NCBI GenBank assembly: GCA_020881915.1
Contig: JAJFPB010000006.1
Location: 1,612,001 to 1,676,000 of the forward strand
From: Paramyrothecium sp. XJ0827
Taxonomy: Eukaryota; Ascomycota; Sordariomycetes; Hypocreales; Stachybotryaceae
Reading direction: 5' to 3'
Length of the DNA stretch: 64,000 nucleotides
In this document: piece after piece, positions 1,028 to 62,232 of the stretch
Numbering within the stretch: position 1 is the stretch's first letter
Layout: each line of letters starts with the position of its first letter
Notes under the pieces: generated by a model
What the model was told of the DNA's origin: nothing
What the model saw: only the letters and a program-made list of their open reading frames with translations
The model's database searches: none
Position numbers and translations under genes: made by a program

Positions 1028-2716
1028 ATGGCCGAGACTGGAAAGGGAAGCATGGAGATCGCTCAGGGCAAGGAACTTGAGAACAACTCCTTGCCAACAG
1101 ATGGTTCCGTGCGAAGCGCAAACGGCATTACCTGGACTGAGGAAGAAGAGAAGGCGCTCGTTCGCAAGATTGACCTCTTCCTTCTCCCTTGCATTTGGCT
1201 CATGTATCTTTTGTCCTACATGGACAGAACGAAGTATGCACCTCTATGACATCTTTCTATCCCCCGCAGCGTGGCTTGATGCTAACACCTAAACTCAGTA
1301 TTGGAAATGCGAAAATTGCCGGCATGACGGACGACCTGAACATGTCATCTGGCCAATATAGTATCGCATTGGTGGTCTTCTTCAGTAAGTTCCCGTCCAG
1401 CCGTGGATAAGCCCTCTTTCTCTGACGATCATCACACAGTTGGCTACGTTATTTTCGAACCGCCGTCCAACATGATCCTCGTCCGAACTAGACCGTCACT
1501 CTACCTCCCAGCCATCATGGCCGTTTGGGGTGTTTTGACTTGCATAATGGCTGTTATTCATAAATATGAACATCTCGTCATTCTTCGTGTATTCGTTGGT
1601 ATCGCCGAGTCAGTCCAATCCCCTCTGCAAAGCTTCAACACGACGCACTAACACGACACTTAGGTCTGGTTTCGCTCCAGGTATCCTTCTCATCATCTCA
1701 TCATGGTACAAGCGCGGTGAGCAGTCAAAAAGGTTCGCCGTTTTCATGTCAGCAGCTATCCTTTCGGGCGCCTTTGGCGGTCTGCTCGCAGGAGCCATCA
1801 CCGGTGGGCTAGAAGGCGCCCATGGGCTGCGAGGCTGGCGTTGGCTCTTTATCGTTGAGGGTGTGGCTACCGTGGGCTGGGCTGGCATTTCTTCACTAAT
1901 TCTTCTCGACTTCCCCGCCAACTCAAAGCGTCTTACGCCGAGGGAAAAGGAGATTGCAATGGCAAGACTGTCACTTGACAGTGTTACTGTCCGTGACGAG
2001 AATCACAAGATTGGAAAGCGAGTCTCCTTCATTTTGGCTCTCAAAGATTGGCGAACGATCGGTTTTGTTCTGGGTTACATGGTAAGCGACATCGCCAAAT
2101 TCTCAAGCGAAGATATACTCACTGCTTCTAGGTCATTGTTGGCTCCTCGACTCTATCTTACTTCTATCCAACGCTTGTCAACGGCTTAGGTTTCACCAGT
2201 ACTGTGCAAGCTCAGTACATGACGGTAAGCTCCAGCTTCTCATATTACCAGATCAAATCTGACTTTTTTCAATAGGTTCCAATCTACGCCTTTGCCTTTG
2301 TTTGTACGGTCATTACTGGCTACTTTGGTGACAAGGTGTCGCAATGGCGAGGTATCATTATTGCAAGCTGGCTCAGCTTCTCCATGGTCACCTCGATTAT
2401 TGTTTGTGTTGTCTACAACTTCACGGCCCGTTACATTCTCCTTGTTCTCATGGCCGCCGGCCTTTGGGCTTCCAACGCCATGTCTCTGTCGTTTGCGTCG
2501 TCATGCTTCGCTACGATGGATCCGGAAGTCCGCGCAATCGCGTTGGCGCTCATGAACGGTATGGGTAACCTCGCGCAAATCTATGGCGCTTATCTGTTCC
2601 CTTCGGATGATAAGCCAAAATATTTGATGGGTTTTGGAGTCATTTCTGGCATGCTGGGTTTTGGCGTTGCTGTTTACATTACGATGTTCTTGCTTGCGCG
2701 GAAGTGGCTCAAATGA
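1028..2716 (+). CDS. Major facilitator transporter, Dal5/allantoate-permease-like anion:cation symporter family
   Basis: A predicted 470-aa plasma-membrane permease with about 12 membrane segments. Six exons: 1028-1233, 1299-1384, 1440-1608, 1664-2081, 2132-2224, 2276-2716; all five introns are 50-65 nt with GT-AG ends, and the joined frame is open throughout. Typical family features are a hydrophilic N-terminus ending EEEEKALVRKIDLFLLP, then SYMDRTNIGNAKIAGM in TM1-loop, FAPGILLIISSWYKRGEQ after TM4, GLRGWRWLFIVEG before TM6 and ALALMNGMGNLAQIYGAYLF in the C-terminal half. The family takes up small organic anions or amides (allantoate, nicotinate, pantothenate, tartrate), and the substrate cannot be read from sequence. 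I chose ATG 1028 over in-frame ATG 902 because conserved sequence begins only after 1028. Neighbouring aldolase hints at uptake of a carbon source. Confidence 0.9.
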
Positions 2717-4197: not shown

Positions 4198-4840
4198 TTA
4201 AGCGCGGCGGCACTTCCAGCCGGCATTGCCAAGGCAAATAATGCCAGAGGCGCACTCCTGAGGCGCGTTTCCAAAGATAGCGCAGTTGGAGAACTAAAGA
4301 ATCGCTGGTCAGCTGCTGTTGGCAATTCGAGGAGGAGAAAAGAAGTACTCACTTTGGGGGCGCAGTTCAAGAAGGTAGAGGTGTAGCCAACACACTTGAT
4401 GAATCGCCAGGCCTTAGCTCCAAACTTCTTGATGACCTTGGCGAGAATGATGATGATTCTGATCCTGTTGCGCTTCTCAAGACCATCCTCACCCTGGGCA
4501 TCATCATCTACCAAATCCTCGATCTCGACTTCATTGTCATTCTCGTCGAAGGCTTGGACTGTCACATTATTCAATGTCAGTTTTGATCGATTTGCAATTG
4601 CTTGAAAGAAGAAGACTTACCACCACCATCCTCAGTTTCAATCAGATAACCCTCATAGACACCGTGGACGATGATGTCCAGCCTCTGGCGGTCATTGCCG
4701 AGGTCAGTGGGGATGAGCTGAACACTGTCGTCGGTTGCAATAGCATCAAGCTCCTTAGTGGCGTCCTCAAAGTCCTTGTCAATGGCAAGTGCGGAAACAA
4801 TGGCCACAAAGGCGAGGAGGAAGGCAAGAACGGAACGCAT
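4198..4840 (-). CDS. Secreted prepropeptide: acidic pro-region, Kex2 site, cationic six-cysteine peptide
   Basis: Predicted 173-aa secretory precursor from three exons: 4621-4840, 4353-4558, 4198-4293 (introns 62 and 59 nt, GTAAGT/CAG and GTGAGT/TAG). Residues 1-19 form a clean signal peptide. Residues 21-103 are strongly acidic (28 Asp/Glu against 6 Lys/Arg by my count) and end in Leu-Glu-Lys-Arg, a Kex2-type site. The remaining 70 residues are cationic (12 Lys/Arg, one Glu). They start with a hydrophobic-basic stretch containing IIIILAKVIKKFGAKAW, then six cysteines spaced C-x9-C-x6-C-x9-C-x5-C-x7-C. An acid pro-segment in front of a cationic disulfide peptide is the layout of many antimicrobial and effector precursors; function here is inferred only. 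I know no named family that it matches. The ATG at 4840 is the first in frame and is directly followed by the signal sequence. Confidence 0.8.
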
Positions 4841-11252: not shown

Positions 11253-13584
11253 ATGGCTCGTCTTGCGAGATCGAAGCACTGCATCATTTGCGGTTGTGCG
11301 GTGCAGCGGCCGTCGGCTGGAGATGTAGCATGGGGAAACAGATATCGCATCCGTTTGTCAACCTCCTCGCAGCGGAACTCGGGAGACCTGAATCTTATCA
11401 ATCTGACCAACCCACTTAGTTTACCGACATAGTGCTTCTGGAACAGCTGTTTCCGGTGTGGCCTCGCACATTGATGCGCGCGGGGGTTCGTGGTACGCGC
11501 CTTGGGACTACGCCGCCGACCGATGCTACGCCGGTAGGGATGGACTACCAGCTGGTGAAGCCATTTCTGTCATGGAGAATTTCGAGGACTTGGGTCAAGA
11601 TCGCTATGGGTTTCCCGCACACGAGTCTTGCTGGTCGTTGCTTGAGAGGGCTTATGCGCCCGGTCGGGTACCCTGTGATACCCTGTTCGACGTCTGCGCT
11701 TCCATGGTCCTGGCCAGTGGTCAGGATATCCTGGATTGGGGACACGATTACGAAGGCGCTGCTCGGATTAGCAGGTGCTTAGAAATGTGGGATCGTACTA
11801 TAGAAGTTCAGGGAATTGTTCCTGATCACCTCAATCATGATCCATGCTACGTCACACAACTTGAGAGCTTGCCTGACAAGAGCATCCCGGCACCTTTGGC
11901 GGAACGAGGAGCTCTTGGAAACCCCGAATTTACCTCTCCAGATGGCTTTCATATGCTACCCAACGATGTACGGCTCATTGTCGCCAACTTGCTAACTACA
12001 GCAGATGCTCTCAATCTTCGACTCGCCTCGCGGGCATTCAATTTCATCTACCACCAGCCGTCATTCTGGGCAAGAAAGTTTAGTCCCGGGAACGAACGTG
12101 AGTGGCTCTTTGAAGCACAACAGTCGCCTGGCCACCAGCCTCTCGATTGGCTGCGGCTGTACAGAGCTACCAATGCAGAAGAAAAGCTCGCCCCTGAGCT
12201 ACGAAATAGAGCCAGGGTATGGCGTTTGGTCAAGCTAATACGAGGCGCCACGCCGGATGCCCCCATCACTTCTTTTTGTCAACCAAGACAGTTTGGGCCA
12301 GCCGCTGAGTTTGACATATGGACCAAAGTAGCCTGCAACATTTGCCATAACCACCCGGACCTTGATATTCAGCAAGCAGACACTCACACGCAAATAAATC
12401 TACATACGCAGTGTGCCCAATTACAAGGCCCATTGACAGAGATTCGTCTCTATTTCATTAAACTTGGCCCTATATACTTCATCTCTGGAATGACCTTCAT
12501 CACGAGGACGGGCAGATTCAGGCACCTGGGATACCAATCGCAGAACGTGGAAACCCTGCGCCTGCTCAGCGATCCGATCGGGTTCAACATCGTGGTTGGG
12601 CCACGGGGTCTACATGCCTTGCAGAGCGTTTATGAAGACGGCAGTACGTCGAGTTGGGCAGGGAAAACTCTCGCTATGCCACATACCAGGAGGTTGGTGG
12701 TTCACGCAAATATCACGGCGGTCAAAGCCACCTGCGATGTCAGTTTCATCATTCTTATCCAAGCTCAGAGTATTGACACTGGATCAGGGTTGTAAAATAA
12801 ACTCTCTGTCCGTAGCAAGATGCGGACCAAGGAGCTCGGCTGAGGCAACTGTCATGGCACAGCAAAGGATCTCTCTCTTCGACTCCGCAATCTGGTATCC
12901 AGAAATGCCCTCAGCTGGTATACACCTCAATCAGAAGTCGGCAGCGCTCCCTATAGAGATTCTCGATGAAGAGAGTGGTGAAATGGAAGATCACTACTTC
13001 CCCATATATTTCACCAAATTCGGAGGGGAAAAGGGGGCTCAACTATCGCTGCTCTCACAAATTAAGGGCAACTTGGACCATGCGCTGGAGTTTCAATATT
13101 CAACCCCAAAACCTCTCGCATCAAGCGTATGGTGCTTGCCTGTAAGAATCGAACATCGATCCCGTCGAAGGGAACAACCAACAGACGTGACTATGAGAAT
13201 CAACGGATCCGAGGGCGAGCGCATCTCGGGCGCTACCATTACGTACAATTGCACCAGCAAGGACAGCAGCGATAATGCGCGGATCTTCGGCGAGTTACGT
13301 ACTCTAGAAGTATGACGTTATCCGAGCACAACGAAGCCCGCAAGCACTAATTTGTTTCTAGCTCAAGACTAACCATGGAGGGTCAGGCAAGTTCATTGTG
13401 AATACAACAGACTATGTTGCAAATTATGTCTCGCTTGATGTTGAGGTTGCACCTGGAACAACAGTTACCGCTGTTTATGGTAGATCTGTGAGGCTCCAAA
13501 CTTATCACTCTATTCTCCTGGATCAGAAGCTAATCACCAGACTAGTCCGGTGGGTTTATCGGCCTTGCTTCTGAGCAGCTGTGA
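11253..13584 (+). CDS. F-box protein with fungal-specific C-terminal region
   Basis: Predicted 701-aa substrate adaptor for an SCF ubiquitin ligase. Exons 11253-11352, 11420-12738, 12788-13309, 13362-13487, 13546-13584; the joined length is a multiple of three and open. N-terminus has KHCIICGC (C-x2-C) followed by WGNRYRILYRHS across the first intron, as in a large family of fungal F-box proteins. The F-box spans FHMLPNDVRLIVANLLTTAD to QPSFWARKF near residues 195-240. Downstream, the conserved IYFISGMTFI, HLGYQSQNVETL, GFNIVVGPRGLHALQSV and SSWAG form the C-terminal domain of unknown function usual in this family. The last junction (13487/13546) gives GRSSGGFIGLASEQL as C-terminus. The first intron's GTTTGT donor is weak but restores the expected motif. 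Target proteins are unknown. Confidence 0.8.
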
Positions 13585-18219: not shown

Positions 18220-19284
18220 CGGGAGGTCATCAAGGCCGAACTGGTATCAAAAACTGAGATACATGGTGTCTTCTATTCGATTTGACCTACTTCTTAGTTA
18301 AAGCTTGCTGTCAAGAGCTTGAATTCCAATTCGTCTCTTCTCGCCCTAACCGAGATTTAAAGTGGGTTGGGGCCCGAAAATTGGTGCAATGGCACTGCCG
18401 ATTCACATATGGCTTGTCAGCATTGTCCAAACAGACTTTCGTCATCGTGCGAAAACAATGAAGGCGTTAAGTGGTATCAATAAAAGTTTTGCGAGGTTCT
18501 CAATACCTATCTGTCCGCTTGACTCAAACCATGCCACCGAACGAACGGGTGACATGTTCAAAGGTTCTGCTTGTCACTTGCAACCGGAGCTTCTCGGCAA
18601 AAATTCCGAGATAAGCATCGTTGACATGCAAGTGTCCGCTGGAATATCACAATCAGTCTAACTTGATGCGTTTCAGTTGAGCAATTAGTTGCAACATTCG
18701 TGAAATGTAAATGATCGCGGAACGATACATCCATCTGCTACATTAACTTTACAATTGCTCGGTCAGCCTAGCCTGATGAGTAGCACTTCAAGTGCAAGGC
18801 CCTCCCATCTCTAGGCTTCCAGGTCGGATGCCATTTCAAAATTGTGCTTGATTGAACAGTTGCCGGGACAGCTGAGGCCGACCTATGTGACGTCACTAAC
18901 ATGGCACAGAATTCTATGTTCTTCGACTTCGCAATACAATGTTAGACTGGGTATTACAAATAATTGTTGCACGTTACTCCCGCCGGGTGGCTCGGGTTCA
19001 TTCTTTTTTTAGATTATTGTTCAATGATATCTACATGTCGTAGCCTTTGACTCGTGACATGAGCTTAGCCCTCAGATCGACCGGGATACCCCTGTGCTCG
19101 AGGCTCAGCCGCAGGCGATGGTTTATCAGTAAACGCACCACTGGCAATTTCTTCCGCTATTGCAGTCTCTGGCCTATGAAATACCTCAATGAAAAATCAC
19201 TGGACGACACATAACGTGAGCCAGCAAACAAAGCGGCTGACGCGTTGATCTTACGATATTTTGTGACCGCAGACATCATTGGTA
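18220..19284. other. Intergenic; nothing seen
   Basis: No open frame above 100 codons and no recognisable RNA or repeat. Confidence 0.5.
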
Positions 19285-21470
19285 ATGAGACGGCTTCTGA
19301 AGCGCCTTGCGCGCGGCCCTCAAGATTTCCTTGATCCACATGAACAAGACCAAGCCAATTCGTCCCTGCGACCATACATGCAAACTCAGAATGCGGCGCA
19401 ACCTTCGGATTTCAGCGATTCGCAATACTACCAGTATCGGCCTTTGAGCTCTCCGAATGCTTTCAGGATCCTGCGTCTGCAACTCCCTGCCTCAGGAAGC
19501 AGCGAGGAATCGTACCGGAATCTGCAGCTCTATGGCTCACTCATCGAGGCCTCATTTGCCAGTCCACCAAAGTACTTCGCTTTATCCTACTGCTGGGGAG
19601 ATTCCACACTGGTAGACAAAATCAACATCGATGGGCGCATCCTGCCCATCACGGCAAGCTGTGGGTCTGCGCTGCGACGAATGCTCCGGGCAAGAAAAGA
19701 TCGGTTGATCTGGATGGACTCGATTTGCATTAACCAGGGCAATACGCCCTCAGCATTGGCCGAGCGTGGCCAACAGGTTGCTATGATGGACCAAATTTAT
19801 AGGGGTGCGGAACAGGTCAATGTGCACCTTGGCGAAGGGGATGCTGCCTCAGATGTAGCGTGCGAAGCCTTGAAGAGTCTTACAGCACCTTATCTAGGAG
19901 CGAAATTACCAGGGCCGCAACAGGAAGCGTGTCGTAGGAAGTACGAGGCTTTGGTCGATGACATCTTGCGTGAGATCTACAATGCACGCATTGGGAGTAT
20001 GAAGTGGCTGACACCTTGGCACAGAAACTACAGAAGCCTATCCTTACGGGAAACTCTACGGCTTTTTTCGGCTACCTTGGTTCAGAAGATGCTGGGTAAG
20101 CTAGCTTTGTTCGTACTGAGAGCGTTGTCCACATTCTAACAAGTATCTCCTCTGTTTAGGTCATCCAAGAGGTGGCATTAGGACGGAAGGTCATGTTCTA
20201 TTGCGGCAAATACTTGCTCCATATGAAGAACATTGTGGTTGCGGCTGACTTTACGAGACTGCCATATTCAAAACTGAATTCGAAGGAGATGGGCTTTCAC
20301 TGGAAGTCGTACCTGAGTTATCATGACGCCATGAACGAGTTCATTTCGAGGAAGGAGAGAGGAGAGCCCATTTCGAACTTCAACATGACGCTATCCACAA
20401 TTGTTCTGCTACCGGCTCTGACTTTCGAAGCAACTCGACCTGAAGACAAGATCTTCTCGCTCTATGGGCTGTGCAAGCGGTTCGGATTCACCATGCCCGC
20501 TCCCGACTACCAGAAACCCCTAGCGGTGGTGTACACAGAGGCTGCAATCGCAATCATCCAAAGCGAAAAAGGCTTAGAGCTATTGAGTATCGTGACGGAG
20601 TCCGCCGGCTGGTACGAATACGGTTTGCCATCGTGGGTGCCCGACTTTTCCGGATCCATGCGACATTGGTCACCTTCCAACCCACCACGTTCCGTGGCAG
20701 GAGCCATCAGTAAATCTCAGATTTCTGGCTCAAGCACGTACGAGTACATCCTGGAGCCAGGCGCAACTCGGCTAGTTGTCAAGGGTCGTCGACTTGGCAT
20801 CGTGTTGGAGGCGGGGCTCCCTTGGATGATGGATTCATCGACATCTTTACTCGGTGATGCAGGTAAGCCGACTGGGCAATACATCGGCGCCTTGATTGAT
20901 AGCATTGGCGGCTGGTATGACATCGCTAGGAACATGTTCCCTCAGGACGATGGCGCGATGGCCCTTCATGCGATGACTCGCACGTTGCTGCTGCTCCGGG
21001 AACGGGGCCAAAGTCCCGCACCCGCATCATTGTCATACGATGCGATCTTACAATGCCTGTCAATCTTGGTAAATGTGTCCAAGGCAGGTCATGCCCACGA
21101 AAGCTTGAACGCTCCACAGTTGCTTATGGTACCCTCTGACAACTTCACAAACCTCTCACAGCTTGGCAGCTATCAGATAAGCACAACCATGCAACTCGCG
21201 ATCCAGCACATGATCCATGTCGGATGGAAGAAACTGATGCGAATTGCAGGAGGGCCTTCCAGTATCGGGGAGCACTTAGCCGTGGGTACCCATACTGCAA
21301 GTCCCGACGACATAATAGTCGTATTTTCAGGAAGTCCGAGTGCGGCCATCTTGCGGCCACATGAGGATGGGTTCCGCTACGTAGGCCCTGCGGCCATAGA
21401 TGGGGTTATGGATGGGGAGTTCTGGTCTCGAAGCTCGGAGAGGGATGATGAGTTCTTCATGTTGATTTGA
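19285..21470 (+). CDS. HET-domain protein (heterokaryon-incompatibility type)
   Basis: Predicted 685-aa protein with an N-terminal HET domain, a TIR-related domain that triggers fungal cell death in non-self recognition or defence. Exons 19285-19969, 20034-20095, 20160-21470; both introns are 64 nt with CTGAC and CTAAC branch points. HET motifs: YFALSYCWGD (block 1), RLIWMDSICINQ and QVAMMDQIYRGAEQVNVHLG (block 2), and PWFRRCWVIQEVALGRKV (block 3), the last only after both introns are removed. An unspliced reading of the first exon runs on in the wrong frame and hides block 3. The rest has the usual low-complexity-free C-terminal half and ends in VGPAAIDGVMDGEFW, the common HET C-terminal strand. 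No second recognised domain (NACHT, ankyrin, WD40) is attached. Confidence 0.9.
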
Positions 21471-24034: not shown

Positions 24035-25150
24035 TCATCCGAAGACAACTTCAGGATAGTTTGGGTTTTCTCCTGCCAGAAGGCCCTCCTTTTCATGGCG
24101 TTGTGAGAACTGGATAAAGTCGTCAAGATACTCAGTCAGGATCTTCATCAACCTGCTCACTGCAATTTTCCCAAACAGAATGTCCACAAGCACTTCATTT
24201 TCTTTTAACCCAGAAGCTTCCCCAATGTGCGGGAAGTCGCTGAAGCTGTTGTGTACCGTTCCCATCGTGCTCAGCTCCTTCGACCAGGAACGAGGAAAGT
24301 TGCTTTTTGTTGCATTGAGAAAGTCGCCCCAGCTTTCGATGACGCTGGAATTATGCCCTTCACCTCCGAATATGAGAAAAGGGCGGCGTACACCCAGATT
24401 CAAGACAGGCCCCCACATCGCACCGTCCAGGTTTACACCACCTGCGATGCGGGACTCGCTGATCATTGCACCTGCTGCTGAAGCGCCGCCGTAGGAGTGG
24501 CCGATGTATGTTGCCTTTTTAATCTTGAATTCGTTCAATACGAATGAAACATCGCTCGTTCGAACGTCGAGACCAAACTCGAGTGAAGTGTTGTTGGTCG
24601 GATCAATCCTCCCACCGATCACGATCTCTCCATCAGGGAAGAGGACAACATCAGTCTCGTATGGGTGGTCCATCACAATAACTTCATATCCTTTGCTCGC
24701 TAGGTGTTGTGCTGTCGCTGTGTAGAAGAGCCTGGTCGTATTTATACCTGGTCCCAATAAGACTGTCGGGTACTTCTCCTTCTGCTTGGTGCCAGATTTC
24801 GTAGGCACACAGCACGTCTGTATTTCCAGGCCTCCTAAGACACCCTTCGGCCATCCAGTTCCGTTCAGATAGTCCTCAAGAATTTCATCCTCAATGGTAG
24901 CAATAGCAGCTGGCATGTATGGAACATTACAAATGGTTCTGCATTTCTTCACGGGGTTGAAATGAGATACCATAATTCGACGCGGTTGGGTTTGGTTGAA
25001 AGGGTCGAGTCGAGTCTCATCAACCAGCTCAGTGTTGGTCCACGTCACTGCAAGATGGCTCTTTGGCAAAGGGATCACATTTGCCAAGCTGATAGAGCAC
25101 AGCAATGACACAAGTGCAAAGCGTCGCATTGTCGTCGGCAATCGGAGCAT
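24035..25150 (-). CDS. Secreted PAF-acetylhydrolase-like alpha/beta hydrolase
   Basis: Intronless, predicted 371 aa. The frame opens at 25222, but a TATAAA on the minus strand (25231-25236) sits only nine bases before that ATG, so transcription should start downstream; the ATG at 25150 (or 25129) is followed directly by a signal peptide (MRRFALVSLLCSISLANVIP). Alpha/beta-hydrolase landmarks: TVLLGPGINTTRLFYTATAQ (oxyanion region), VIVMDHPYET, nucleophile elbow YIGHSYGGASAAG (Ser in G-x-S-x-G), GGVNLDGAMWG, and a late HNSFSDFPHIG that could supply the His. This matches the fungal relatives of platelet-activating-factor acetylhydrolase / lipase. Substrate is likely a short-acyl ester or oxidised phospholipid, inferred from family only. 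N-glycosylation sequons are frequent (NGT, NTT, NNT, NSS), fitting secretion. Confidence 0.82.
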   Translation of the reverse strand: MLRLPTTMRRFALVSLLCSISLANVIPLPKSHLAVTWTNTELVDETRLDPFNQTQPRRIMVSHFNPVKKCRTICNVPYMPAAIATIEDEILEDYLNGTGWPKGVLGGLEIQTCCVPTKSGTKQKEKYPTVLLGPGINTTRLFYTATAQHLASKGYEVIVMDHPYETDVVLFPDGEIVIGGRIDPTNNTSLEFGLDVRTSDVSFVLNEFKIKKATYIGHSYGGASAAGAMISESRIAGGVNLDGAMWGPVLNLGVRRPFLIFGGEGHNSSVIESWGDFLNATKSNFPRSWSKELSTMGTVHNSFSDFPHIGEASGLKENEVLVDILFGKIAVSRLMKILTEYLDDFIQFSQRHEKEGLLAGENPNYPEVVFG

Positions 25151-25230
25151 CGTGGGAGTGAGGCCTGTATTTGGCGTGAGGAAAATAAGCAAAGCCCCTC
25201 TTGAAGGAATTTCAACAAACATGGAGCCGT

Positions 25231-25236
25231 TTTATA
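25231..25236 (-). promoter_or_regulatory. TATA box of the PAF-acetylhydrolase-like gene
   Basis: TATAAA on the minus strand, 81 bases before the chosen ATG at 25150. It decides against the longer open frame starting at 25222. Confidence 0.45.
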
Positions 25237-28210: not shown

Positions 28211-30101
28211 ATGGAGGGTCCACAGCGAAGAAGAGGATTGGGCCGTCGAAAGGTAATGATGTTCCGGAAAAGCCAAGACCAGACCGCTCACTCGATGACA
28301 GGCCTGCGATGTTTGTTGTCAGAAGAAAGCCAAATGCGACGCAAAGAAGCCCAGGTGTTCAACATGCGAGATGCATGGCTTGCCATGCTTATGGACTCCG
28401 GGACTTTCTAAGAAGAAAGGCATTGAGAAGAAAGATGAGAGGTTTGTCTTTGTTGCAATCCTTGCAGAATCATAGACTGTTCACCTAACTTGCTCGTTGG
28501 GCAGCCGTCGCTTTGAGGCGATTGAGGACCGTTTACTAGCACTAGAGTCTATGCTGCGGCGTAAAGCTTCGGATGTTCAGACAAGCTCGGAGAATCGCCC
28601 CGAACTTGAACCCTGCTTTGCTAGTCCACTTCGATCATCCCCTTCAGTCGCGGATGGGTCGTACTTATCCCCGGACTGCCACGATGATGATGAACGCTTC
28701 CCGTTGCCTTCGCAGCAAAGCATTCTCAAATTTGCTGCAAACTATTTTCAAGGCTTCAACCAGGCTCTGCCACTGTTTCAATACGATGTCTTCACAGAAA
28801 TGGTTACAAACTGGTACCACAATCCCTCGCAACGGGACAAGGCGACCTGGGCAGTAATAAACGTGGTGGTGGCCCTTTCTGCACGGTATGCCTCCGAGGA
28901 AGGTGATGCAGAGAGCGACAGCGTCGCTAGGGCATGCATCAGCAATGCTCAATCTGTGATGGATAGTCTTGTCTACCGAGAGCAAGATTTGAAAGGGCTA
29001 CAAGTCGTGCTTGGACTTGTTATACTGTTTCTCGGTTCTCCTCACCCTTACCCGACCAGTGTTTTGATAGCGACGGCTGTACAATTGGTTCATCGACTAA
29101 GGCTTCACTTGCAAGACGCGAGTGGCGCAATGAGTTTTGATGTCTCATCAGAGCGCTCTGGCCTGTTCTGGATTACCTACATCTTGGACCGGGACATATC
29201 GTCCCATACACTGGAGCCATACCTATTGCAGGACCACGACATTGACGTAGACTTCTACGACGGTGCTGCGTCTAGCTTCGGATCTGGGGTTCTAACATTT
29301 GACGATGGCAATGCAAATTTTGATTACTTCCAGGCTCGCATCAAGCTTGCTCAAATTCAAGGCCGGACCTATGATCTAGTTTACTCCGTCAGAGCATCGA
29401 GATTTACTGTAAATCAGAAGCAGGCGGCTGTGGAGAAGCTCAATCAGATGCTTACTGAGTGGTACAAGGTGATTCCGATGCAGTTCACCCTCGCTAACTT
29501 TTCGATGTTGGACAAAGACATGCAAAGGCATGCAATACTGCTTCATGTTTCGTACTACCAGTGCCTTTTCATGGCCCATCAAACCCATTCGCGTGACGCC
29601 AGCTGGCTCGTTCGTCTAACTGAGTTTAGCGACGCCCTTGCAAACGAAACCATGGAAGCAACAGATGCGGGACCGACTTCTCCCATCTTACCCATCAACT
29701 GGTCAAGCCTCTTGAAAGCAGCGAGAAGTTTTCTGTCGCTGCCAGACCTGATAGGATCTGGTAACTCTGCACTCTTGTGGTAAGATCAAATCGATAGCAA
29801 ACCCAGAGCTCATTCAACGCTAAACATCAGCAGGCGAACCTCATGTTCTTACCAAGCCGCGATTGTTATACTAGCGGCAAATAACCTGACGGTCTCTGAG
29901 CACTGCTTTCATGATGAAATAGATGATGACACTGAGTGCATTGACAAAGCTACTCAAGAGCTCTCGCGGCGTCTGCAGAATGTCGAAGATGCTCGCCTCC
30001 GAACCTCGTGGTACATATGCTCTGATATGGGCAAGAGAGCTGCCAGAGCAATCGAGTTGTTCAAGGAGAATATGGGAGAGACAGGTTTCCCCTCACCGTG
30101 A
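28211..30101 (+). CDS. Zn(II)2Cys6 transcription factor with fungal-specific TF domain
   Basis: Predicted 574-aa nuclear regulator. Exons 28211-28252, 28302-28441, 28505-29779, 29834-30101; the joined frame is open. The binuclear zinc cluster ACDVCCQKKAKC, then CSTCEMHGLPC (C-x2-C-x6-C-x6-C-x2-C-x6-C) lies at residues 16-42, preceded by a basic RRRGLGRRK and followed by a short coiled linker RFEAIEDRLLALESMLRRK. The middle homology region runs from FAANYFQGFNQALPLF to the HRLRLHLQD and FWITYILDRD segments, typical of the fungal-specific TF domain. The unspliced reading of the first exon hides the zinc cluster. Located next to three secreted hydrolase genes and divergent from one, so it may control them; that is inference from position. 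Confidence 0.88.
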
Positions 30102-31975: not shown

Positions 31976-33375
31976 ACAGCATAAGCAACTAGACAAAGGT
32001 CGTTCCGAAATACCTGCATCCAGCCGAAACCGAAATTGGTGTAGCCATAGCAGTAGATGGTATCGTTCGTTTGATTCTCAGAGCATTCCCGCTTCTGCGA
32101 GATATGAAGAGGGAGGCTCTATAAATGCAGTCTCATGAGAAAGAAGAGGTCTACAATCAGAGATGAAAACCAGCAGCTCTATTGCATTATTCATTCGATG
32201 ATGCAATACTCGGAAGCTTCAGGTTGCAGTAGTGACATCTGGGAGCCCATTAAGAAATCTCGGGCTCGCCGAAGTTACTGTCTTCTCGATGGACCGCCGG
32301 TCCAAGTACAACGGAACTTGATTCGGTGATCCATTACCTTATGAGGCTTTGAAATGTGGTCTCAGTTGCTGCTTCCGCAATTATCTTTACGAGGATCGAT
32401 GTTCGCTGTCGCCGGGTTGGGAGTGGTCGATGATGTCGCCAAGCGGGCAGCCTGTCTCACTACTTCTAGGACTGAAACATCGCCACGTTTGATATCGGGC
32501 CGCCGCGCGGCACGGGAGTTCCCTCGTACTAGATGTTCTTCGTTCCCCACACCGTCATTGCAAACTCGAAAGCGCCTCTTGACAACAAGTCTTGAATCGT
32601 CTTCTTGCGCCATGCGTATAGTTCGTGGCAGCTATATCTCAAACCCTACTTGTACTACGTTCCTTCTATCCTGTTTTGGGTTTCACAGGTTCACCTTGTA
32701 TCTTAGGGGCCGTTTAGATGTCAGACCAGTGCACAACAGACGCATGATGTCACAAAGAGTCGAGACAGAGTTTGAGGGGTCGGACTCGTTTGATTGCGCG
32801 TCATAAGGAAATCGTGTAGCACAGACTACCATTGATCACCCAGCGCCTTGGCCTATTGAATGCAAGCAAAGCGGTTAGCAAATCCGAATGTTTCTCAAGT
32901 GCTGCCGGTAGTCTATACCTTGAGTAATGATGCTCTTCCTCCCCCGCCTGCCATGTTTGAGATGATGCCTCGGTCACATGGTGGTTGGTGCAGAATGTGG
33001 CCTGCAAGCGGCCTTATCGGACTCTTGTCGGACCCTGCAAGAAACATTGTTGCGACACCTGATGTATTACAAGACAGGTCGCCGATGGTTACGTAGTCAA
33101 GTAGTCAGCATGATTAACCGACAGTCAGCCCGGTCCTTCTTTCTGATTGATTCTTGGTAATTCCGATCAGAAAAGCACGGGAAAAACAATGACGCAGCTA
33201 AGCACTTATGTTTATTCCGAGGTGAAGAGAGAGGGGAAGAGAATCGATAACAGTAGCGAAAGTATTAAAACTGGGATAATCCCAATGCCATCCTCGAGTT
33301 TCAGCTTGAGTATCAGCTTTTGCGTCCAAGACTATCAACACCAAGCTCCGAAAGCAACCCCTATCTATTTTCATC
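31976..33375. other. Intergenic / possible 5' remnant of the PAD relic; no gene
   Basis: Base composition and short frames only. The signal-peptide end of the PAD relic may lie near 32050-32060, but I cannot define it. Confidence 0.35.
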
Positions 33376-34779
33376 ATGATGGCAGCCACAACTCTCGCTC
33401 ACACGCCACATCCGCTCCGTCACCAGCCAAGGTTTGGCAATTGGCTTCCGCCTGATTCACATGTTCTGGTTCAATGGGTTTCGAAAGTTGCCGCAATCGC
33501 TGACGAGAAGGCGAGGGTGGAGCTCCAGCCGAATCTTTGGCCTGAATGCATCAAAGACCTCAGCGAGCTTATTGAAAGCACTACTGAATTTCGCATGTTA
33601 GCCTCAGCAATGTTTGATGAGGTTCCCGAGAAATATCCGTACAATCACGATCCCGTCAAGTACAAGCAGATAAGAAGCTACAAACACATGCTTGCTGCAT
33701 TTGCCTACATTGTTACCGAGTTTGCACCGATATGGAGCAGTGAGGAAAACCAAGTTGGCTTGATTGGATTCCCTTTCAATGCAATCCTCGATTGGCCTAT
33801 GGCGACCCCGAGTGGGTATGCCTTCTTCCTGAAGCCCGAGGTCAATGAGAAGTTTGGCGTCATTCTCGACTATTGGGCTACCAATGTCCTCATGACGCAC
33901 AGATCACAACATGTGCTTTCGACGAAAGCCAATGGATGGTTAAGCAATGAGGCCCGAGCGGCTATCGAGAATGATACCAACTTGGACGACAAAAAGCTCA
34001 AGTTCCAAGAACTCTTCGAATGTGACCCAAACGATGAACATTGGGGGTTCAAATCTTGGGACGACTTCTTCGTGAGAAAATTCAAGGACATGGACAACCT
34101 GCGGCCTGTGGCTCACCCACAAGACAAGCATTGGATTACAAATGCGTGTGAATCAAAGACGTATTCGATTCAGGGCAATGCTGAAAGTTTCGACAAGTTT
34201 TGGCTCAAAGGCCAGCCATACTCAGTAGCTGAGATGTTGAATCATCATGCTGATGCAGACAAATTCGTTGGGGGCACAGTTTACCAAGCTTTTCTGAGTG
34301 CTACGTCCTACCATCGTTGGCACTCACCGGTGACAGGCAAAATTACTCACGCGGAGGTCGTCAAAGGGTCGTACTTCTCGGAGCCCACAATGAGTGGGTT
34401 TTCGAACCCAGAAGGCCCAGATCCGGCCGCTCCTTACGACTCTCAAAGATACATCAGTCATGTTGCTACTCGTTCCATCTTCATAATTGAGGTCGAGCCG
34501 CCAATCCATTGGGTGTGCGTTGTCTTTGTTGGTATGGCTGATGTTTCAACGTGTGACATTGATGCAAAGTTCAAGGCGAACCTGCCACAGCCAGTCACCA
34601 AGGGAGATGAGATCGGAATGTTTCACCATGGAGGTTCCAGCTACTGTCTGCTGTTGCCTAAAGAACTGACTGTTGCATTTGCCGGTGTATCTCACCAAGG
34701 AACTGCCGACAACGCGAAGAACATAGCCGTTCGCTCAGCGCTGGCTTATGTGGACCTTGCTCGCGATGGCTCCAGGTGA
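33376..34779 (+). CDS. Phosphatidylserine decarboxylase-related (tryptophan-decarboxylase-like) protein
   Basis: Intronless, 467 aa. Belongs to the pyruvoyl-dependent phosphatidylserine decarboxylase family, in the branch with an extra N-terminal PSDC-type domain that includes fungal L-tryptophan decarboxylases such as PsiD. N-terminal domain near residues 35-180 contains EKYPYNHDPVKYKQIRSY and IGFPFNAILDWPMATPSGY. Catalytic part: WDDFFVRKFKDMDNLRPVA, SATSYHRWHSPVTGKI with the conserved His, and the self-cleavage site GMFHHGGSSYCLLLP, where the second Ser of GGSS should become the pyruvoyl cofactor. No membrane anchor or mitochondrial presequence is apparent, unlike true phosphatidylserine decarboxylases. 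This argues for a soluble amino-acid decarboxylase in a specialised pathway, but substrate is inferred. ATG ATG at 33376/33379 gives two equivalent starts. Confidence 0.85.
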   Translation: MMAATTLAHTPHPLRHQPRFGNWLPPDSHVLVQWVSKVAAIADEKARVELQPNLWPECIKDLSELIESTTEFRMLASAMFDEVPEKYPYNHDPVKYKQIRSYKHMLAAFAYIVTEFAPIWSSEENQVGLIGFPFNAILDWPMATPSGYAFFLKPEVNEKFGVILDYWATNVLMTHRSQHVLSTKANGWLSNEARAAIENDTNLDDKKLKFQELFECDPNDEHWGFKSWDDFFVRKFKDMDNLRPVAHPQDKHWITNACESKTYSIQGNAESFDKFWLKGQPYSVAEMLNHHADADKFVGGTVYQAFLSATSYHRWHSPVTGKITHAEVVKGSYFSEPTMSGFSNPEGPDPAAPYDSQRYISHVATRSIFIIEVEPPIHWVCVVFVGMADVSTCDIDAKFKANLPQPVTKGDEIGMFHHGGSSYCLLLPKELTVAFAGVSHQGTADNAKNIAVRSALAYVDLARDGSR

Positions 34780-41385: not shown

Positions 41386-41787
41386 CCTTACCTCGAGAGG
41401 TAGGTACAGAGGCTACGCGGCCACATTATTTGCGAGCTGAAAAAGCAAACATAACAGGGATTTGCAAAACATAGCAGCCCGTGCCCAGGCTGTGGCCAAC
41501 GGCCCGCCCGTATTACATGAGCCGTGTGGCGTCCAGATGAAGAAAGCTCAAGGCCCGGTCGGAACTCGAGTTGATCCGCCCAGTCCAGTGATCTCGGCTG
41601 AGCTATCCGTTCTTCCATCTGAGTCAACCAAGATCACAAACATGCGGGGCGTGAGGCTCCCCGTGCTGCGCGAGGAACTATGATCTACTGAACCGAACCG
41701 CTGCAACGCTTCAAGGCAAGCGTGGTTGGTCCTGCATTTGCAACGTGACGTGTCGGGTTCGCTCTGCGCCGCAATCCAGGCAACATT
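41386..41787. other. Divergent spacer, TPR gene / kinase gene
   Basis: No features seen; would hold both promoters. Confidence 0.45.
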
Positions 41788-44700
41788 ATGGATAGCAACC
41801 CAGACCACACCAGCGATGGTGAAACATTCCCTTCTATCCTCTCGGAAGAAATACATGATAATGCTGATAACGGCGAACCTCTTGGATATTTTAGGGACTG
41901 CGGTGTGACAGATATCTTATTGCCATTCTCCGATGACGAGCGGCTGAGCGGTCTTCCCAAGACACTCAGAGAAGACCGACAAAAGCGTGAAGACTTCCTT
42001 CGGAGACAGAAACGCGTAATCTCGGACAAGTTCCAGCGGACGGGGTTGCGCGACGCTGTCGAAACTCGATCGCTAGAACATGTCCATCTTCCAAAACTCC
42101 ACGTTCACTATCTCGATTATGCGACCGAATCGAACGTATTCAAGACAGAGTCAGACGTGTCCGAGACAGAGTCTAGCACGTTTGAGACAGAGTCAATATT
42201 TGGACAAGGCCGCCGGCCACGTGGGAAAGGGGGTTACGGGAAGGTTTACCCCGTGTCAATCAAGCGACAGAGCTTTGCACTCAAGCTGGTTCCTCGCATT
42301 ACTGGCTGGGAGAACCTCACCCGTATCTCGCCAGGATACCGACATCCCGATTCGAGGCAAAGATCTTTCGAGACAGAGCTCAAGGTTCTGAAAGCCATGC
42401 AACGTGACTTTCGTGGACTGCCGCCATTATTGAAGAAAGTAGGAGAACAGCACACAGTCCAACTCTGTGCCAGCTTCACCGACACCCACAATTTTGGTTT
42501 ATTGCTTTCGCCTTTGGCTTTTTGCGATCTGAAAGAACTCATGCGCAAAAGTGCCACGTCTATCCATTGTGAAGGGAAACACCTTAGCAAGGACAAAATC
42601 GAAACCGCACTTCGTGAAGCCTTTGGCTGTCTTGCTGCTGGACTGCTATTTCTACATCGGAGCGGGATCAGGCACAGAGACATCAAACCCAAGAACATCT
42701 TGGTGGATATTATAGACGAGGATATTCAAATGAAGTTTTGTGACTTCGGAACAGCTCATCTTGCATCACAATCTACCATTAATTCACACCCGGAGACATC
42801 AGACGGGAAACCAAGTCCCTGGACGCCGGAATACTCGACTCCAGAGAGGGCTACACAAAACACACGCGATTTTCCCGACGATCTTTTTACACTTGGGCTT
42901 GTGTTTCTTGATATAGTAACAGTCTTGGGGGGCAGGAGGTTATCGTCTCTCAAGAAATATGTTGCCGAGAGAACCTTGGAGGATAAAACCTTCGCTGTAA
43001 ATAGGAATGAACTAGATGAGAGGGCGTCCAGCCCAGAGGAGATGCGGACATTCTTCGTGGCTAACAAAAAATACGTACCAATCCGTGGATACCCTTGCAA
43101 AGGGCCTGATCTGGCAAGGTGGCTCGACGAACTGGAGTCATCATCTCCTTCGACAACCGCGATCCCAAGACTTGGATTGCCAACTTGGTAAGTCCATGTC
43201 CATTCATTGCCAGTTCAAGTCTGATGTATCAAGCTTTCGAGAAAGCCAAGCGACAGATGGACCGTGGAAGGTCTTCTGAAAGAGATGGGAAGGTCCGATA
43301 ATCATGAATTCCGAGGAAGGTGTTGTCATAATGTCTTCACTGGAAATGGAACACTGTGGAAACTTATCACAGGCTACGAGACAGAACCAATCTTCAAAGG
43401 CGAAGTGTCTGATTTTGACTGGCAACTTCATGTGCAATCGTCCGACCTCCGATCCAGAAAAGACCGCGTGGAAGGAGGAGAGATTGGTCTGGCCGTCTTT
43501 GATCGTTCTCCTTTCGAAAGAAGTCTTGTGCTGGCGAACATATGGTCCAATGAACCCAAAGCAGTTGTGCACGAGTGTAAGTCAGGCGAAAGCATACGTT
43601 CCGCAATAGAAGACTAATGCTCGTCAACTCGCTGCAGGGTTTTCTCTAACCAATGTGCACCCCTTATACCAAAAGGAATCGTCTAAGGTGACAATGAAAT
43701 GGTCAGATTACAATCAGCTCCTGGTGAGCAACATTGGTAGGTGACCTTGAACTGGACCACCATTTGCAGACATATGTTGACTTGTCTGGAGACGGTGAAT
43801 CGACGTATCGAAGAGCAAGTCTCGCCATGTATTTCAGCTCGCCTGTGCTTTTGTTAACATCATTTCAGGGGCTTGATTACCAAAACCCTAACAATACGCT
43901 GGAACTTACCTTCCCAAATCCAGAAGGCGAGTAACCTATCGGACATGCATCAGATTCTCGGGTCGCTAACACTGTCAATATAGCGGCAGAAGAATTTCTC
44001 GAAAAGGTTTTCCCACTGTACTCCCCTTACCTACAGCAAGGCGATACATTGTCACATCCTCGAGTCTTATTGGAGGGAACCGAGAGAAACCTGCACCATA
44101 ATTTCCCTGGACTTGAGGATGAAGAAGGTTCAGGCTATCGTTCGCTCTTCATTCAGGAATGCGACACCGAAAAAAAGCTAGATGAAAGAGTCATTTTCAG
44201 GGGTTTCAAGCTATACAGAATCCACAAGACACAACCAGCTATGGACATCCAGATAAGTGATAAGAATATCACCATACTTGGGCTGGAGTCATTCGAGTTC
44301 CGCTCAGAAAGTGATTCTAAGTCCCGCTCACAGATCATCAAAGGTCCACCACAACGGACCCAGGGAACAGTGACTCGAACCTTTTCTAGCGACAACAATA
44401 ATCGGATTCGTCCCGGGTGGTGTATTATCGATGGTCGCGTCAATAATCCTGGCCCTCCTGGTTTTGTGGATTTTTTCAACGACCTGACCAACTCAAAGGT
44501 ATTCTTTTTGGGTACGGTGGCAGCCATTGAGTACGCTCGGCCCCTACGGGACAAGAAGTTCGGCAAGGGCTTCTTGATCCTTTAGGAGTCAATTGATAAG
44601 TCCGGTCGTGGATTTGTTATCAAGTTAATGGATCGATCAGAACACCCACAGGACAGAATATGGTTGTACGGATGCTGTAAGTTGACCTAACCTTTATAGT

Positions 44701-59048: not shown

Positions 59049-61474
59049 ATGCAATTCCAAACCTCCCTCCCAGATGGTGATGCTGGGAACCAGCGCCAGA
59101 AGCCCATCACGCAACGGCGCGCCCGAGCTCCATTGTCTTGCGAGCCATGTCGCGCCCGGAAGTATGCGGACCCAGTCCAGCTGCGCAACCACCACGATGG
59201 CTGATTTTCATTCTCAGGCTGAAGTGTAATCGAGAACAGCCGTGCCAGAATTGCACAGCCCGTGGGCAGGAAGGGGCGTGCAATTTTTTTGGAACGAAGG
59301 CGACAGGCAGTTCTCGCCGCGGCCCGGGAGACGTCAGTACGTCGGCAATGCGAGGTCGCATCGACAAGCTGGAGCAACTCGTCAAAAAGCTCATCGCAGA
59401 GCGTCAGGAAGAACAGGTCTCGGTGCAGAATAGCGTCCCATATCAGGTCCACACACCTGACAGCACTCAAATAGAAGCGGACTCAGAAGCCGATCCTCAA
59501 GGCGAGGCGAACGCTGGGCGAGTAGTGATTGACGGTGTCCACTCTGTCTTTTCCGGCGGTGACAATTGGTATGCTGTTTTGCAAGAGGTGAGTCGAGCTC
59601 AGGGAGCAACAGTTTTCCGAAAGAAGGTGTCCTTGTCGTGGTTTTGCGGTGTGCAACTTGGCGAATTCTGGGCTAATGTGCATTAGATCGACGAGCTCAA
59701 GAAATCATATAGTCAAGACCACGACATCCACAGCCAAAAGAACCTTCGTGCTGCTCTTTCTCACACAGTCGATGGATCGAGTCTGCTTTTCCGTCAAGCA
59801 AACCCAATTGAACGGCTGGAAATACTTGCCAGCCTTCCGCCTAAAACCGAAGTGAATCAACTGCTATCGCGATTCTTTGACCGCGACACATTTCCAATCA
59901 CATTCCATCGTAAGCAATTCGGGGGGGTTTTAATGGGAAGTGCAGCTGATCAAGACAAAATAGCCATCCTTCATGAGTCAACCTTTAGACGTGAGGTACG
60001 CCCACAAGCTCTTTTATTCACTCTATCTTCATGCTTACGTCGTCGCCGTAGCTTGAAAAGCATTGGAAAGACCCTTCTCAAACAAACTTCATATGGCTCG
60101 GTCTTTTATTTTCCATCCTTGCCATTACGATGCTTGCTTATCATCAGAATGGCGAGCCGGCGCAATACGAAGGCATCTCCGAAGCGCGTTTCGAGCTCTA
60201 TCGAGTGCGTACAGCACAATGCCTCTTGCATGGGGATATTGCCAAGTGCCTACCATATACAGTGGAAACCCTACGTTTTAATGCGGCGGCTGAGCTGAAT
60301 CGCAGAGACGACAATAGCCGTGGATTGTGGATATTGACCGGAGTCGTCGTCCGCGCAGCCATCAACATGGGCTATCACCGAGATCCTTCGCATTCTCCCG
60401 AATTTACTGTCCTGCAAGCAGAATACCGAAGGCGCGTTTGGCTGTCAGTCATTGACATGGATGACATGACTTCATTCCTAGGTGGTTTTCCGCGGACCAC
60501 GGCATCAATCTTTTCGGACACTGCTGAGCCTCGCAACCTACACGACTGGGAGTTACCTGAAGATCCTCACTGTACGGTACTGCCTCCATCGAGGCCCCTC
60601 ACAGACCCGACTGCTTCTACGTACTCGATTGCAAAAAGCCGTCTTCTTCGTGCTCTGGGACGTATCGCGGACTTCAACAGCAGACCGAATGTGGGATCTT
60701 ACGACACAGTTCTGGAAATCGATCGCGCTGTCTCCGAGGCATACGAGGGGTTTCCGGCACACTTGAAGGTCCCACCTTTGTGGAAGGACAATGATGGCCC
60801 TGTCAGACCTGCACTCAGATTTTCCAGCCTGGGGTTGCTTGGAATTTATTACAAAGGACTCTGCATTCTACACCGTAAGTACTTGGCCAGAGGAAGAGTT
60901 GATAGTCGGTACAAGTTTTCTCGGGATCGGTGCCTCTATTCGGCAATGGCAATATTGGCCCACCAACGAGATTTGGACGAAGTGGTGTACCATATCTCCT
61001 TGGTGCGGCAACTGCTCACACTTGCCGCAATGATCATTTGTTTCGAGCTCGAGCTCAGGCAGAAAGTCGCAAATGCTGAGGCGGATTTGAACCCAAGCAG
61101 TGAGACTCTGATTAATTCACTAGAGCAGGCTTGCAATACTTGGGCTGGAGCCGCCCTAGCTAACGATGATGCGGCACGAGTTTACAATGTTATTGCCAGC
61201 ATGTTGTCCGCCTTTAAGGCAGGGCAAGAATCAAGTGCAAGCACCGTATTGGAGACTCCCAGCTCGGGATCGCCATCTTTCAGATTTGATCTGACCTCGC
61301 CCTTCGTTACGCATAACGATGGACTACCACCTGCCGACGACAAATACCAGATGGATTTTGACTGGGTCTGTTCATGGATAAAAAGGCCCCTTAACTTCGT
61401 TTTACTAACGCGCATAGACCTCTTGGGATGCCTTTATAGAAGAGACAGGAAACGATATCAGCGCCATTTTCTAG
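59049..61474 (+). CDS. Zn(II)2Cys6 transcription factor beside the DHA2 pump
   Basis: Predicted 702-aa nuclear regulator. Exons 59049-59161, 59218-59587, 59687-59909, 59964-59995, 60052-61365, 61418-61474; the joined length is a multiple of three. The zinc cluster CEPCRARKLKC, then CQNCTARGQEGAC (C-x2-C-x6-C-x5-C-x2-C-x8-C) is built across the first intron at residues 33-62. Linker DVSTSAMRGRIDKLEQLVKK is coiled-coil-like. The fungal-specific TF domain includes LLHGDIAKCLPYTVETLRF, LWILTGVVVRAAINMGYHRD and AEYRRRVWLSVIDMDDMTSF with the classic G-x-H-R-D, RRR-W segments. Removing the last intron gives MDFDWTSWDAFIEE, the family's usual ending, so the gene stops at 61474 rather than at 61524. 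Likely controls the pump and P450, by position only. Confidence 0.9.
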
Positions 61475-62232
61475 AAAGGTTTCAGCCTACAAGAACGTGC
61501 GAGCTGTCCGATCACAATGCGTAACGGCAAGACCCGGTGATGCAAAGATCACTCAATGTATTATTAATCACCCCTATTTAGATCACTCAATGTATAATCA
61601 ATGATCACTGGTTTGAAGAGTTTCATCTGCTTCAATAATTTATCCAGTGGCAGACATGCCGTCACCGAATCGACTTCAATTGACGGGACCTCTGTATAAT
61701 CATCATATAATGGCTGATTGATACTGCCAAAGAAAAAAAAACCTTGAGCTTAAGTATCTCTCTTGATCTAGAGGATAACTGCACTACCAAGATACATCGT
61801 TCTCTCGTTGCAATCCATTTTGGCAGACCACACAAGCGGAAACCCTTGAGTTGGTATTGATGAGTTTCAATGCTCGGAGAACGATGACAAATATACATGA
61901 CGATAACAGGAAATCATGTTTTCTTTGTGTCCATTTTTGGTGGTTTGAGCTCAGGAAGCTTTTTAGATGCAGTTGCACGAGAACATTGTATTAAACACAG
62001 AATATTAACAAGGGTGAGAATGGAGGTGCAAACACGCGTCTCGCACACGCGTCCCGGTAAAGGGGGGCCGAACTAATTAACGTGCTCCCTCCATAGCCTT
62101 CGATTGGTAAGAATTATGCGAAGTCAGCAGAGCGCGGGCCTGAAATACCTCCACCACGTTGCCCCAAACCTCCACACAATACCCCTGACAACAACCACCA
62201 AATAACATTATCGGACCAAGCCTCTAAAAGAA
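61475..62232. other. Intergenic with a 15-nt direct repeat
   Basis: AGATCACTCAATGTA occurs at 61546-61560 and again at 61580-61594. No gene seen. 5' region of the next regulator at the right end. Confidence 0.45.

What the first reader, a model, noticed from the sequence alone, without database searches (positions are those of the whole stretch)
4198..4840. Candidate new secreted cationic peptide with an acidic pro-region
Directly visible: signal peptide, an 83-residue pro-region of net charge about -22, Lys-Arg end, then a 70-residue part of about +11 with a hydrophobic-basic N-terminal stretch and six cysteines. Known knowledge: Kex2 cleavage after Lys-Arg and acid pro-segments that mask cationic peptides are standard for defensin-like and killer-type precursors. 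Inference: an antimicrobial, effector or signalling peptide. The combination of a big-defensin-like hydrophobic leader helix and an unmatched Cys spacing (9-6-9-5-7) is not one I can place in a described family.
Basis: partly seen in the sequence, partly recalled or inferred. Interest (0 to 1): 0.8.

Follow-up and report, generated by a model that had tools for sequence, protein, structure and literature searches.

The report
Unnamed fungal Kex2-cut cationic peptide family
A fungus carries a conserved gene for a small, positively charged, cysteine-rich peptide that appears to be secreted and made joined to a negatively charged protective segment; it looks like an undescribed kind of fungal antimicrobial or effector peptide, but its activity is untested.

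Summary
On the minus strand (4840-4198) lies a three-exon gene for a 173-residue precursor: signal peptide (by eye), an 84-residue pro-region of net charge -22, Glu-Lys-Arg, then a 70-residue part of +11 with six cysteines spaced 9-6-9-5-7. It is a conserved gene. The same genome holds a diverged second copy (41% identical) with both introns at the same places and phases. All 5 intact members found (two here; Paramyrothecium foliicola, Dactylonectria macrodidyma, one metagenome) share the Glu-Lys-Arg junction and exactly that cysteine spacing. The stretch before the first cysteine is amphipathic if helical: basic and hydrophobic mean directions lie 177-187 degrees apart in 5 of 5. No Pfam, NCBIfam or PDB family was matched. 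AlphaFold models of two members (three-sequence alignments, moderate confidence) make the mature part all-helical and the pro-region a small beta domain, so big-defensin membership fails. Best reading: a Kex2-matured, helical, disulfide-braced, membrane-active peptide shielded by an acidic pro-domain and used against competing microbes or in a plant host. Precursor architecture is well supported; secretion, cleavage, disulfides and activity are inferred. New family of a known general kind.

The parts
4198..4840 (-). whole three-exon gene, start codon to stop codon, precursor of 173 residues
   Evidence: splice model and translation; 92% identical full-length protein in Paramyrothecium foliicola; paralogue with the same intron places and phases
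4621..4840 (-). exon 1: signal peptide (residues 1-19, by eye) and first part of the acidic pro-region
4559..4620 (-). intron 1, GT...AG, 62 bases, phase 1
   Evidence: same place and phase in the paralogue
4353..4558 (-). exon 2: rest of the pro-region, the Leu-Glu-Lys-Arg junction, the amphipathic stretch and the first two cysteines
4294..4352 (-). intron 2, GT...AG, 59 bases, phase 0
   Evidence: same place and phase in the paralogue
4198..4293 (-). exon 3: last four cysteines and stop codon
4997..5010 (-). TATA-like sequence with flanks, starting 166 bases before the ATG; the paralogue has one at 140 bases. Weak evidence: no chance expectation was computed.

Best explanation
The gene makes a secreted prepropeptide. 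The signal peptide sends it into the secretory pathway; the acidic pro-domain (84 residues, -22) helps the cationic part fold and oxidise and shields its basic amphipathic helix; Kex2 cuts after Leu-Glu-Lys-Arg late in the pathway; a 70-residue peptide of +11 with three disulfides is released. The freed helix (25 residues before the first Cys) then binds anionic membranes or walls of other cells, so the peptide most likely acts as an antimicrobial or competitor-directed peptide, perhaps during plant colonisation. Shown here: gene structure, conservation of the junction and cysteines, charge polarity, amphipathicity on an ideal helix, presence in the genome of a domain typical of proprotein convertases. 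Inferred: secretion, cleavage, disulfides, shielding, membrane action and target.
For: Gene model exact. 5 of 5 intact members: EKR junction, Cys spacing 9-6-9-5-7, pro-region -18 to -22, mature part +11 to +12. EKR also in 4 of 4 incomplete models that cover that stretch (P0002, P0005, P0006, P0008), so 9 of 9; the three Dactylonectria proteins are near-identical and not independent. Pre-Cys stretch: Eisenberg moment 0.50-0.68, reached by 4.6, 4.9, 0.1, 0.1 and 0.1% of 2000 shuffles each; Lys/Arg and hydrophobic mean directions 177-187 degrees apart in 5 of 5; one acidic residue in each mature part; the last 30 pro residues before Lys-Arg carry -11 to -13. The Kex2 preferences P2 Lys, P1 Arg, P4 aliphatic (PMC8528282, parts 1 and 2 of 3 read) are all met in 4 of 5 (P0003 has Asn at P4). 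A P_proprotein domain is in the genome. Within the paralogue/Dactylonectria/metagenome clade the mature part is more conserved than the pro-region: 64 of 73 against 52 of 78, 49 of 73 against 34 of 78, 53 of 73 against 40 of 78.
Against: No activity, expression or mass-spectrometry data. Between the two clades the mature part is not clearly better conserved than the pro-region (window vs paralogue 28 of 70 against 35 of 78; vs P0003 27 of 70 against 31 of 78; vs P0004 31 of 70 against 24 of 81), so the pro-domain may have a function of its own. The window's own stretch is only weakly more amphipathic than its shuffles (4.6% reach it), and its hydrophobic residues cluster weakly on the wheel (R 0.27). 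Cationic, Cys-rich and secreted fits apoplastic effectors and signalling peptides too. Among the 9 neighbouring ORFs scanned at the two loci no obvious partner gene appeared.
Confidence: 0.5

Rival explanations
1. A Kex2-processed pro-domain (K2PP) effector that acts on the plant host (apoplast or cell), not on microbes.
For: The precursor resembles the K2PP description (PMC8528282); named relatives come from Paramyrothecium and Dactylonectria, genera with plant-associated species (black-foot disease by Dactylonectria: abstract start of PMC7712071 in the listing; Myrothecium-like weak pathogens: abstract start of PMC6583245 in the listing).
Against: No convincing match to any solved protein by sequence and no Foldseek match at E <= 0.001, though the models are of moderate confidence; strong positive charge and an amphipathic stretch favour membranes.
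Confidence: 0.25
2. An endogenous peptide of the fungus itself: a signalling peptide or a hyphal-surface amphipathic peptide, comparable in role to Kex2-released repellents.
For: Kex2-released amphipathic peptides that coat hyphae are described (Rep1, in PMC8528282). Only two copies were found in the genome, anciently diverged.
Against: Single non-repeated product, six invariant cysteines, very high charge; few relatives in the databases (10 proteins), unlike a core developmental factor, although the search reaches only relatives that share exact words.
Confidence: 0.15
3. The conserved acidic beta-type pro-domain is an active product as well, and the basic part is mainly its partner or a storage form.
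For: The pro-region is predicted as four strands plus helices (pLDDT 73-80 for residues 41-80 of the P. foliicola protein; only 50-64 in P0004) and is about as conserved between clades as the mature part.
Against: Inside the second clade the pro-region differs more than the mature part in 3 of 3 pairs.
Confidence: 0.08
4. Artefact: a chance open frame or wrong splice model.
For: Several database models of relatives look mis-spliced (P0002, P0005, P0006), so splice models in this family are easily wrong.
Against: Paralogue with the same introns, phases and cysteines although the coding DNA of the two no longer aligns above shuffled background; full-length 92% homologue.
Confidence: 0.02

Closest known systems
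Kex2-processed pro-domain (K2PP) effectors of plant-pathogenic fungi (SnTox3, ToxA, SIX1, SIX4, SIX6; PMC8528282, PMC10942635)
   Same: Signal peptide, N-terminal pro-domain, Kex2 motif; a pro-domain that may help folding.
   Different: No convincing sequence match to any PDB chain. The mature part is 70-74 residues, strongly cationic and predicted all-helical, while the SIX FOLD members described in the passages seen are two-domain, mainly beta proteins; the pro-domain here is predicted structured; the Kex2 site lies slightly past the middle of the precursor.
Big defensins (horseshoe crab, bivalves, amphioxus; PMC7203481, passages)
   Same: Pro-domain with dibasic cleavage, hydrophobic N-terminal region, cationic C-terminal six-Cys region.
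   Different: Reported as exclusively animal; N-terminal domain beta-alpha-alpha-beta and C-terminal beta-defensin domain, against only helices predicted here; the Cys spacing differs (big-defensin spacing recalled, from no call).
Fungal CS-alpha-beta defensins (plectasin type; PMC10771296, passages)
   Same: Fungal cationic Cys-rich peptide; Lys-Arg-type maturation of plectasin is recalled.
   Different: No C-x3-C or C-x-C (motif recalled) in 5 of 5 members, no predicted strand in the mature part of two models, no Pfam match.
Kex2-released amphipathic fungal peptides (Ustilago Rep1 in PMC8528282; candidalysin recalled)
   Same: Kex2 release of an amphipathic peptide.
   Different: Here one product per precursor, followed by a six-Cys domain.

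Membership tests
K2PP effectors | canonical Kex2 motif after an N-terminal pro-region, with a signal peptide before it | tested here: met
   EKR in 5 of 5 intact members, P4 aliphatic in 4 of 5; signal peptide judged by eye only
K2PP effectors | pro-domain removed by Kex2 before secretion | not testable with these tools
   needs mass spectrometry or in vitro Kex2; a P_proprotein domain is in the genome
K2PP effectors | pro-domain in the first half, often without secondary structure (a search criterion of PMC8528282 rather than a strict definition) | tested here: not met
   KR at 102-103 of 173; strands predicted in the pro-region
K2PP effectors | effector function on a plant | not tested
   no plant data
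Big defensins | C-terminal beta-defensin domain and beta-alpha-alpha-beta N-terminal domain | tested here: not met
   mature part predicted all-helical in two members (last 35 residues of P0004 at pLDDT 78-88, its N-terminal helix at 56-72); features from PMC7203481 passages
Big defensins | disulfide pairing 1-5, 2-4, 3-6 | not testable with these tools
Fungal CS-alpha-beta defensins | C-x3-C and C-x-C of the CS-alpha-beta motif (recalled) | tested here: not met
   spacing 9-6-9-5-7 in 5 of 5
SIX-type FOLD effectors | two-domain, mainly beta fold | tested here: inconclusive
   no convincing PDB match by sequence, no Foldseek match at E <= 0.001; models of moderate confidence, mature part barely tested by VIA-align
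any Pfam or NCBIfam family | score above the curated cut-off | tested here: not met
   Pfam and NCBIfam on 5 full-length members: no hit near a cut-off; best were NapD, 16.1 bits against 28, and LapC_YejM_PbgA, 16 bits against 825. Pfam on 5 mature parts: best E 0.14

The most novel reading that the evidence does not exclude
A previously undescribed fungal peptide family in which a folded acidic beta-type pro-domain acts as built-in chaperone and antidote for an all-helical, three-disulfide, membrane-active peptide: by convergence a fungal counterpart of the two-part big-defensin plan, with an unrelated fold.
Probability: 0.22. Interest if true: 0.7.

Novelty: new variant of a known kind. Interest (0 to 1): 0.48.

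Why it matters
[quoted passage not shown] If active, it would add an antimicrobial or effector family so far seen only in Hypocreales and metagenomes, and a folded pro-domain as a possible self-protection device.

Tried and rejected
Big defensin and CS-alpha-beta defensin membership: rejected (see membership test).

Twin-CX9C (mitochondrial CHCH, recalled) reading of C-x9-C-x6-C-x9-C: considered because the first four cysteines have that spacing; set aside because the precursor has a signal peptide and because in both models the second and third cysteines lie on one helix (C139 and C146 in helix 134-148 of P0001, C140 and C147 in helix 135-149 of P0004).

Bacterial or viral origin: scans of genome contigs and viral contigs with alignment A4 gave 585 and 600 pattern matches and no relative by tblastn; two short patterns each, so a limited test.

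Gene-cluster idea: of 9 neighbouring ORFs scanned (5 in the window, 4 at the paralogue) 6 had a family: MFS and DUF7600 near the window gene; P450, cupredoxin, NACHT and WD40 near the paralogue; nothing shared. Promoter, 3' flank and intron similarity between the two copies: none exceeded the best of 200 shuffles.

Papers: 9 searches showed no description of this family in the rows listed; most listings are the top few of many, and only open PMC papers are held. Four locus tags of relatives gave 0 papers. This does not show absence from print.

Full report
Observation. The gene lies on the minus strand exactly at 4840-4198: three exons, introns of 62 and 59 bases with GT...AG ends, and a product of 173 residues. 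After a typical signal peptide (cut taken after Ala19, by eye) come 84 residues of net charge -22 ending in Leu-Glu-Lys-Arg, and then 70 residues of +11 with six cysteines spaced 9-6-9-5-7. The charge split is far outside chance for this composition: 0 of 100,000 shuffles reach it.

It is a conserved gene. The window's genome (51.8 Mb, 15 contigs, no name) holds a second copy on contig 8 at 4272690-4273378. Its protein is 41% identical, its two introns fall at the same places in phases 1 and 0, and it has the EKR junction and the same Cys spacing. The coding DNA of the two copies no longer aligns above shuffled background (score 26; best of 200 shuffles 28), so what they share has been kept at protein level over a long time (inference). 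A search of the genome with P0004 at E up to 10 found these two genes and one further match at E 1.01 to an unrelated long frame.

Relatives. Three searches of about 5.8 billion proteins found 10 relatives in all (in one search only the 7997 candidates sharing most words were scored): P0001 from Paramyrothecium foliicola (92%, full length), P0003 and P0006 from Dactylonectria macrodidyma, P0005 from D. estremocensis, and P0002, P0004, P0007-P0010 without organism name. P0001, P0003 and P0004 are intact. The other seven are incomplete or look mis-spliced: P0002, P0006, P0007, P0009 and P0010 appear to read into intron 1; P0002, P0006 and P0008 into intron 2 at the same point; the end of P0005 resembles the neighbouring frame of exon 3 seen in the paralogue. 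So the six-Cys pattern rests on 5 of 5 intact members, two of them the genes of this genome, and the EKR on 9 of 9 sequences that cover it. P0003 and P0006 are identical over their shared exons, and P0005 differs from P0003 at 2 of 137 places, so these three count as about one observation. P. foliicola is in Stachybotryaceae and Dactylonectria in Nectriaceae, both Hypocreales. The window is probably from a Paramyrothecium or a near relative (inference from one protein). No bacterial or viral relative was seen.

Anatomy. In all five intact members the mature part has one acidic residue, and the stretch before the first Cys carries +7 or +8 with basic and hydrophobic mean directions 177-187 degrees apart on an ideal helix. 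The 30 residues just before Lys-Arg carry -11 to -13, next to the basic stretch. Models of P0001 and P0004, from alignments of three sequences, have mean pLDDT 64 and 61. They show four strands with flanking helices in the pro-region and only helices in the mature part; the last 35 residues of P0004 are at 78-88, the mature part of P0001 at 62-81 apart from its first residues. These are moderate-confidence predictions.

Mechanism. Most likely (0.5): Kex2 releases a helical, disulfide-braced cationic peptide that acts on membranes of other cells, and the acidic pro-domain shields and folds it until then. For K2PP effectors the pro-domain was needed to produce several of them correctly folded, while its role is otherwise called unknown (PMC8528282, parts 1 and 2 of 3 read). 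A proprotein-convertase domain (P_proprotein) is in the genome; that it belongs to Kex2 was not checked. Secretion, cleavage, disulfide pairing, target and activity are inferred. Against: conservation between the two clades does not clearly favour the mature part (window vs paralogue 28 of 70 against 35 of 78), although within one clade it does (paralogue vs P0003 64 of 73 against 52 of 78). Rivals: plant-directed effector (0.25), endogenous signalling or surface peptide (0.15), active pro-domain (0.08), artefact (0.02).

Known families. Nothing near a cut-off in Pfam (mature parts) or NCBIfam (first scans), no convincing PDB match by sequence or by fold. Big defensins share the plan but not the predicted fold (PMC7203481, passages). 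K2PP effectors share precursor logic; the FOLD members are two-domain, mainly beta proteins (PMC10942635, passages). The antimicrobial-effector predictor paper PMC13127573 was searched for six terms only; its main text has no occurrence of Dactylonectria or Myrothecium. Plectasin paper PMC10771296: two passages only.

Verdict. A real, apparently undescribed family of Kex2-type cationic cysteine-rich peptides, so far seen in Hypocreales and in sequences without organism name; new as a family, of a known general kind.

Noticed in passing
window 1548-2716 (+): Exons of an MFS transporter gene upstream of the peptide gene (PF07690 on the piece 1548-2189; the piece 2276-2716 gave no hit but looks like its continuation).
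   Followed up: partly
window 11407-12795 (+): Protein with a DUF7600 domain (PF24539).
   Followed up: no
window 19267-20139 (+): HET-domain (heterokaryon incompatibility) gene (PF06985).
   Followed up: no
window 33310-34779 (+): Phosphatidylserine decarboxylase-like protein with a PSDC domain in front.
   Followed up: no
window 24035-61524: PAF-acetylhydrolase-like protein (24035-25231), fungal transcription factors (28476-29783, 60052-61524), protein kinase (41749-43191) and P450 (53457-55187); 3 of the 10 ORFs scanned there had no family.
   Followed up: no
L014:2232-4155: NACHT-type (NPHP3_N) and WD40 pieces close downstream of the paralogue on contig 8, a NACHT-WD40 arrangement.
   Followed up: no
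P0002, P0005, P0006 (database proteins): Models of relatives that seem to miss an intron or use a wrong splice site, so that the six-Cys pattern is hidden in public annotation.
   Followed up: yes
L004 (paralogue), residues 21-83 of its protein: Weak match of the pro-region to the end of LapC/YejM/PbgA (E 0.0027), at about the place where fold matches of P0004 also fall; within the chance range.
   Followed up: partly
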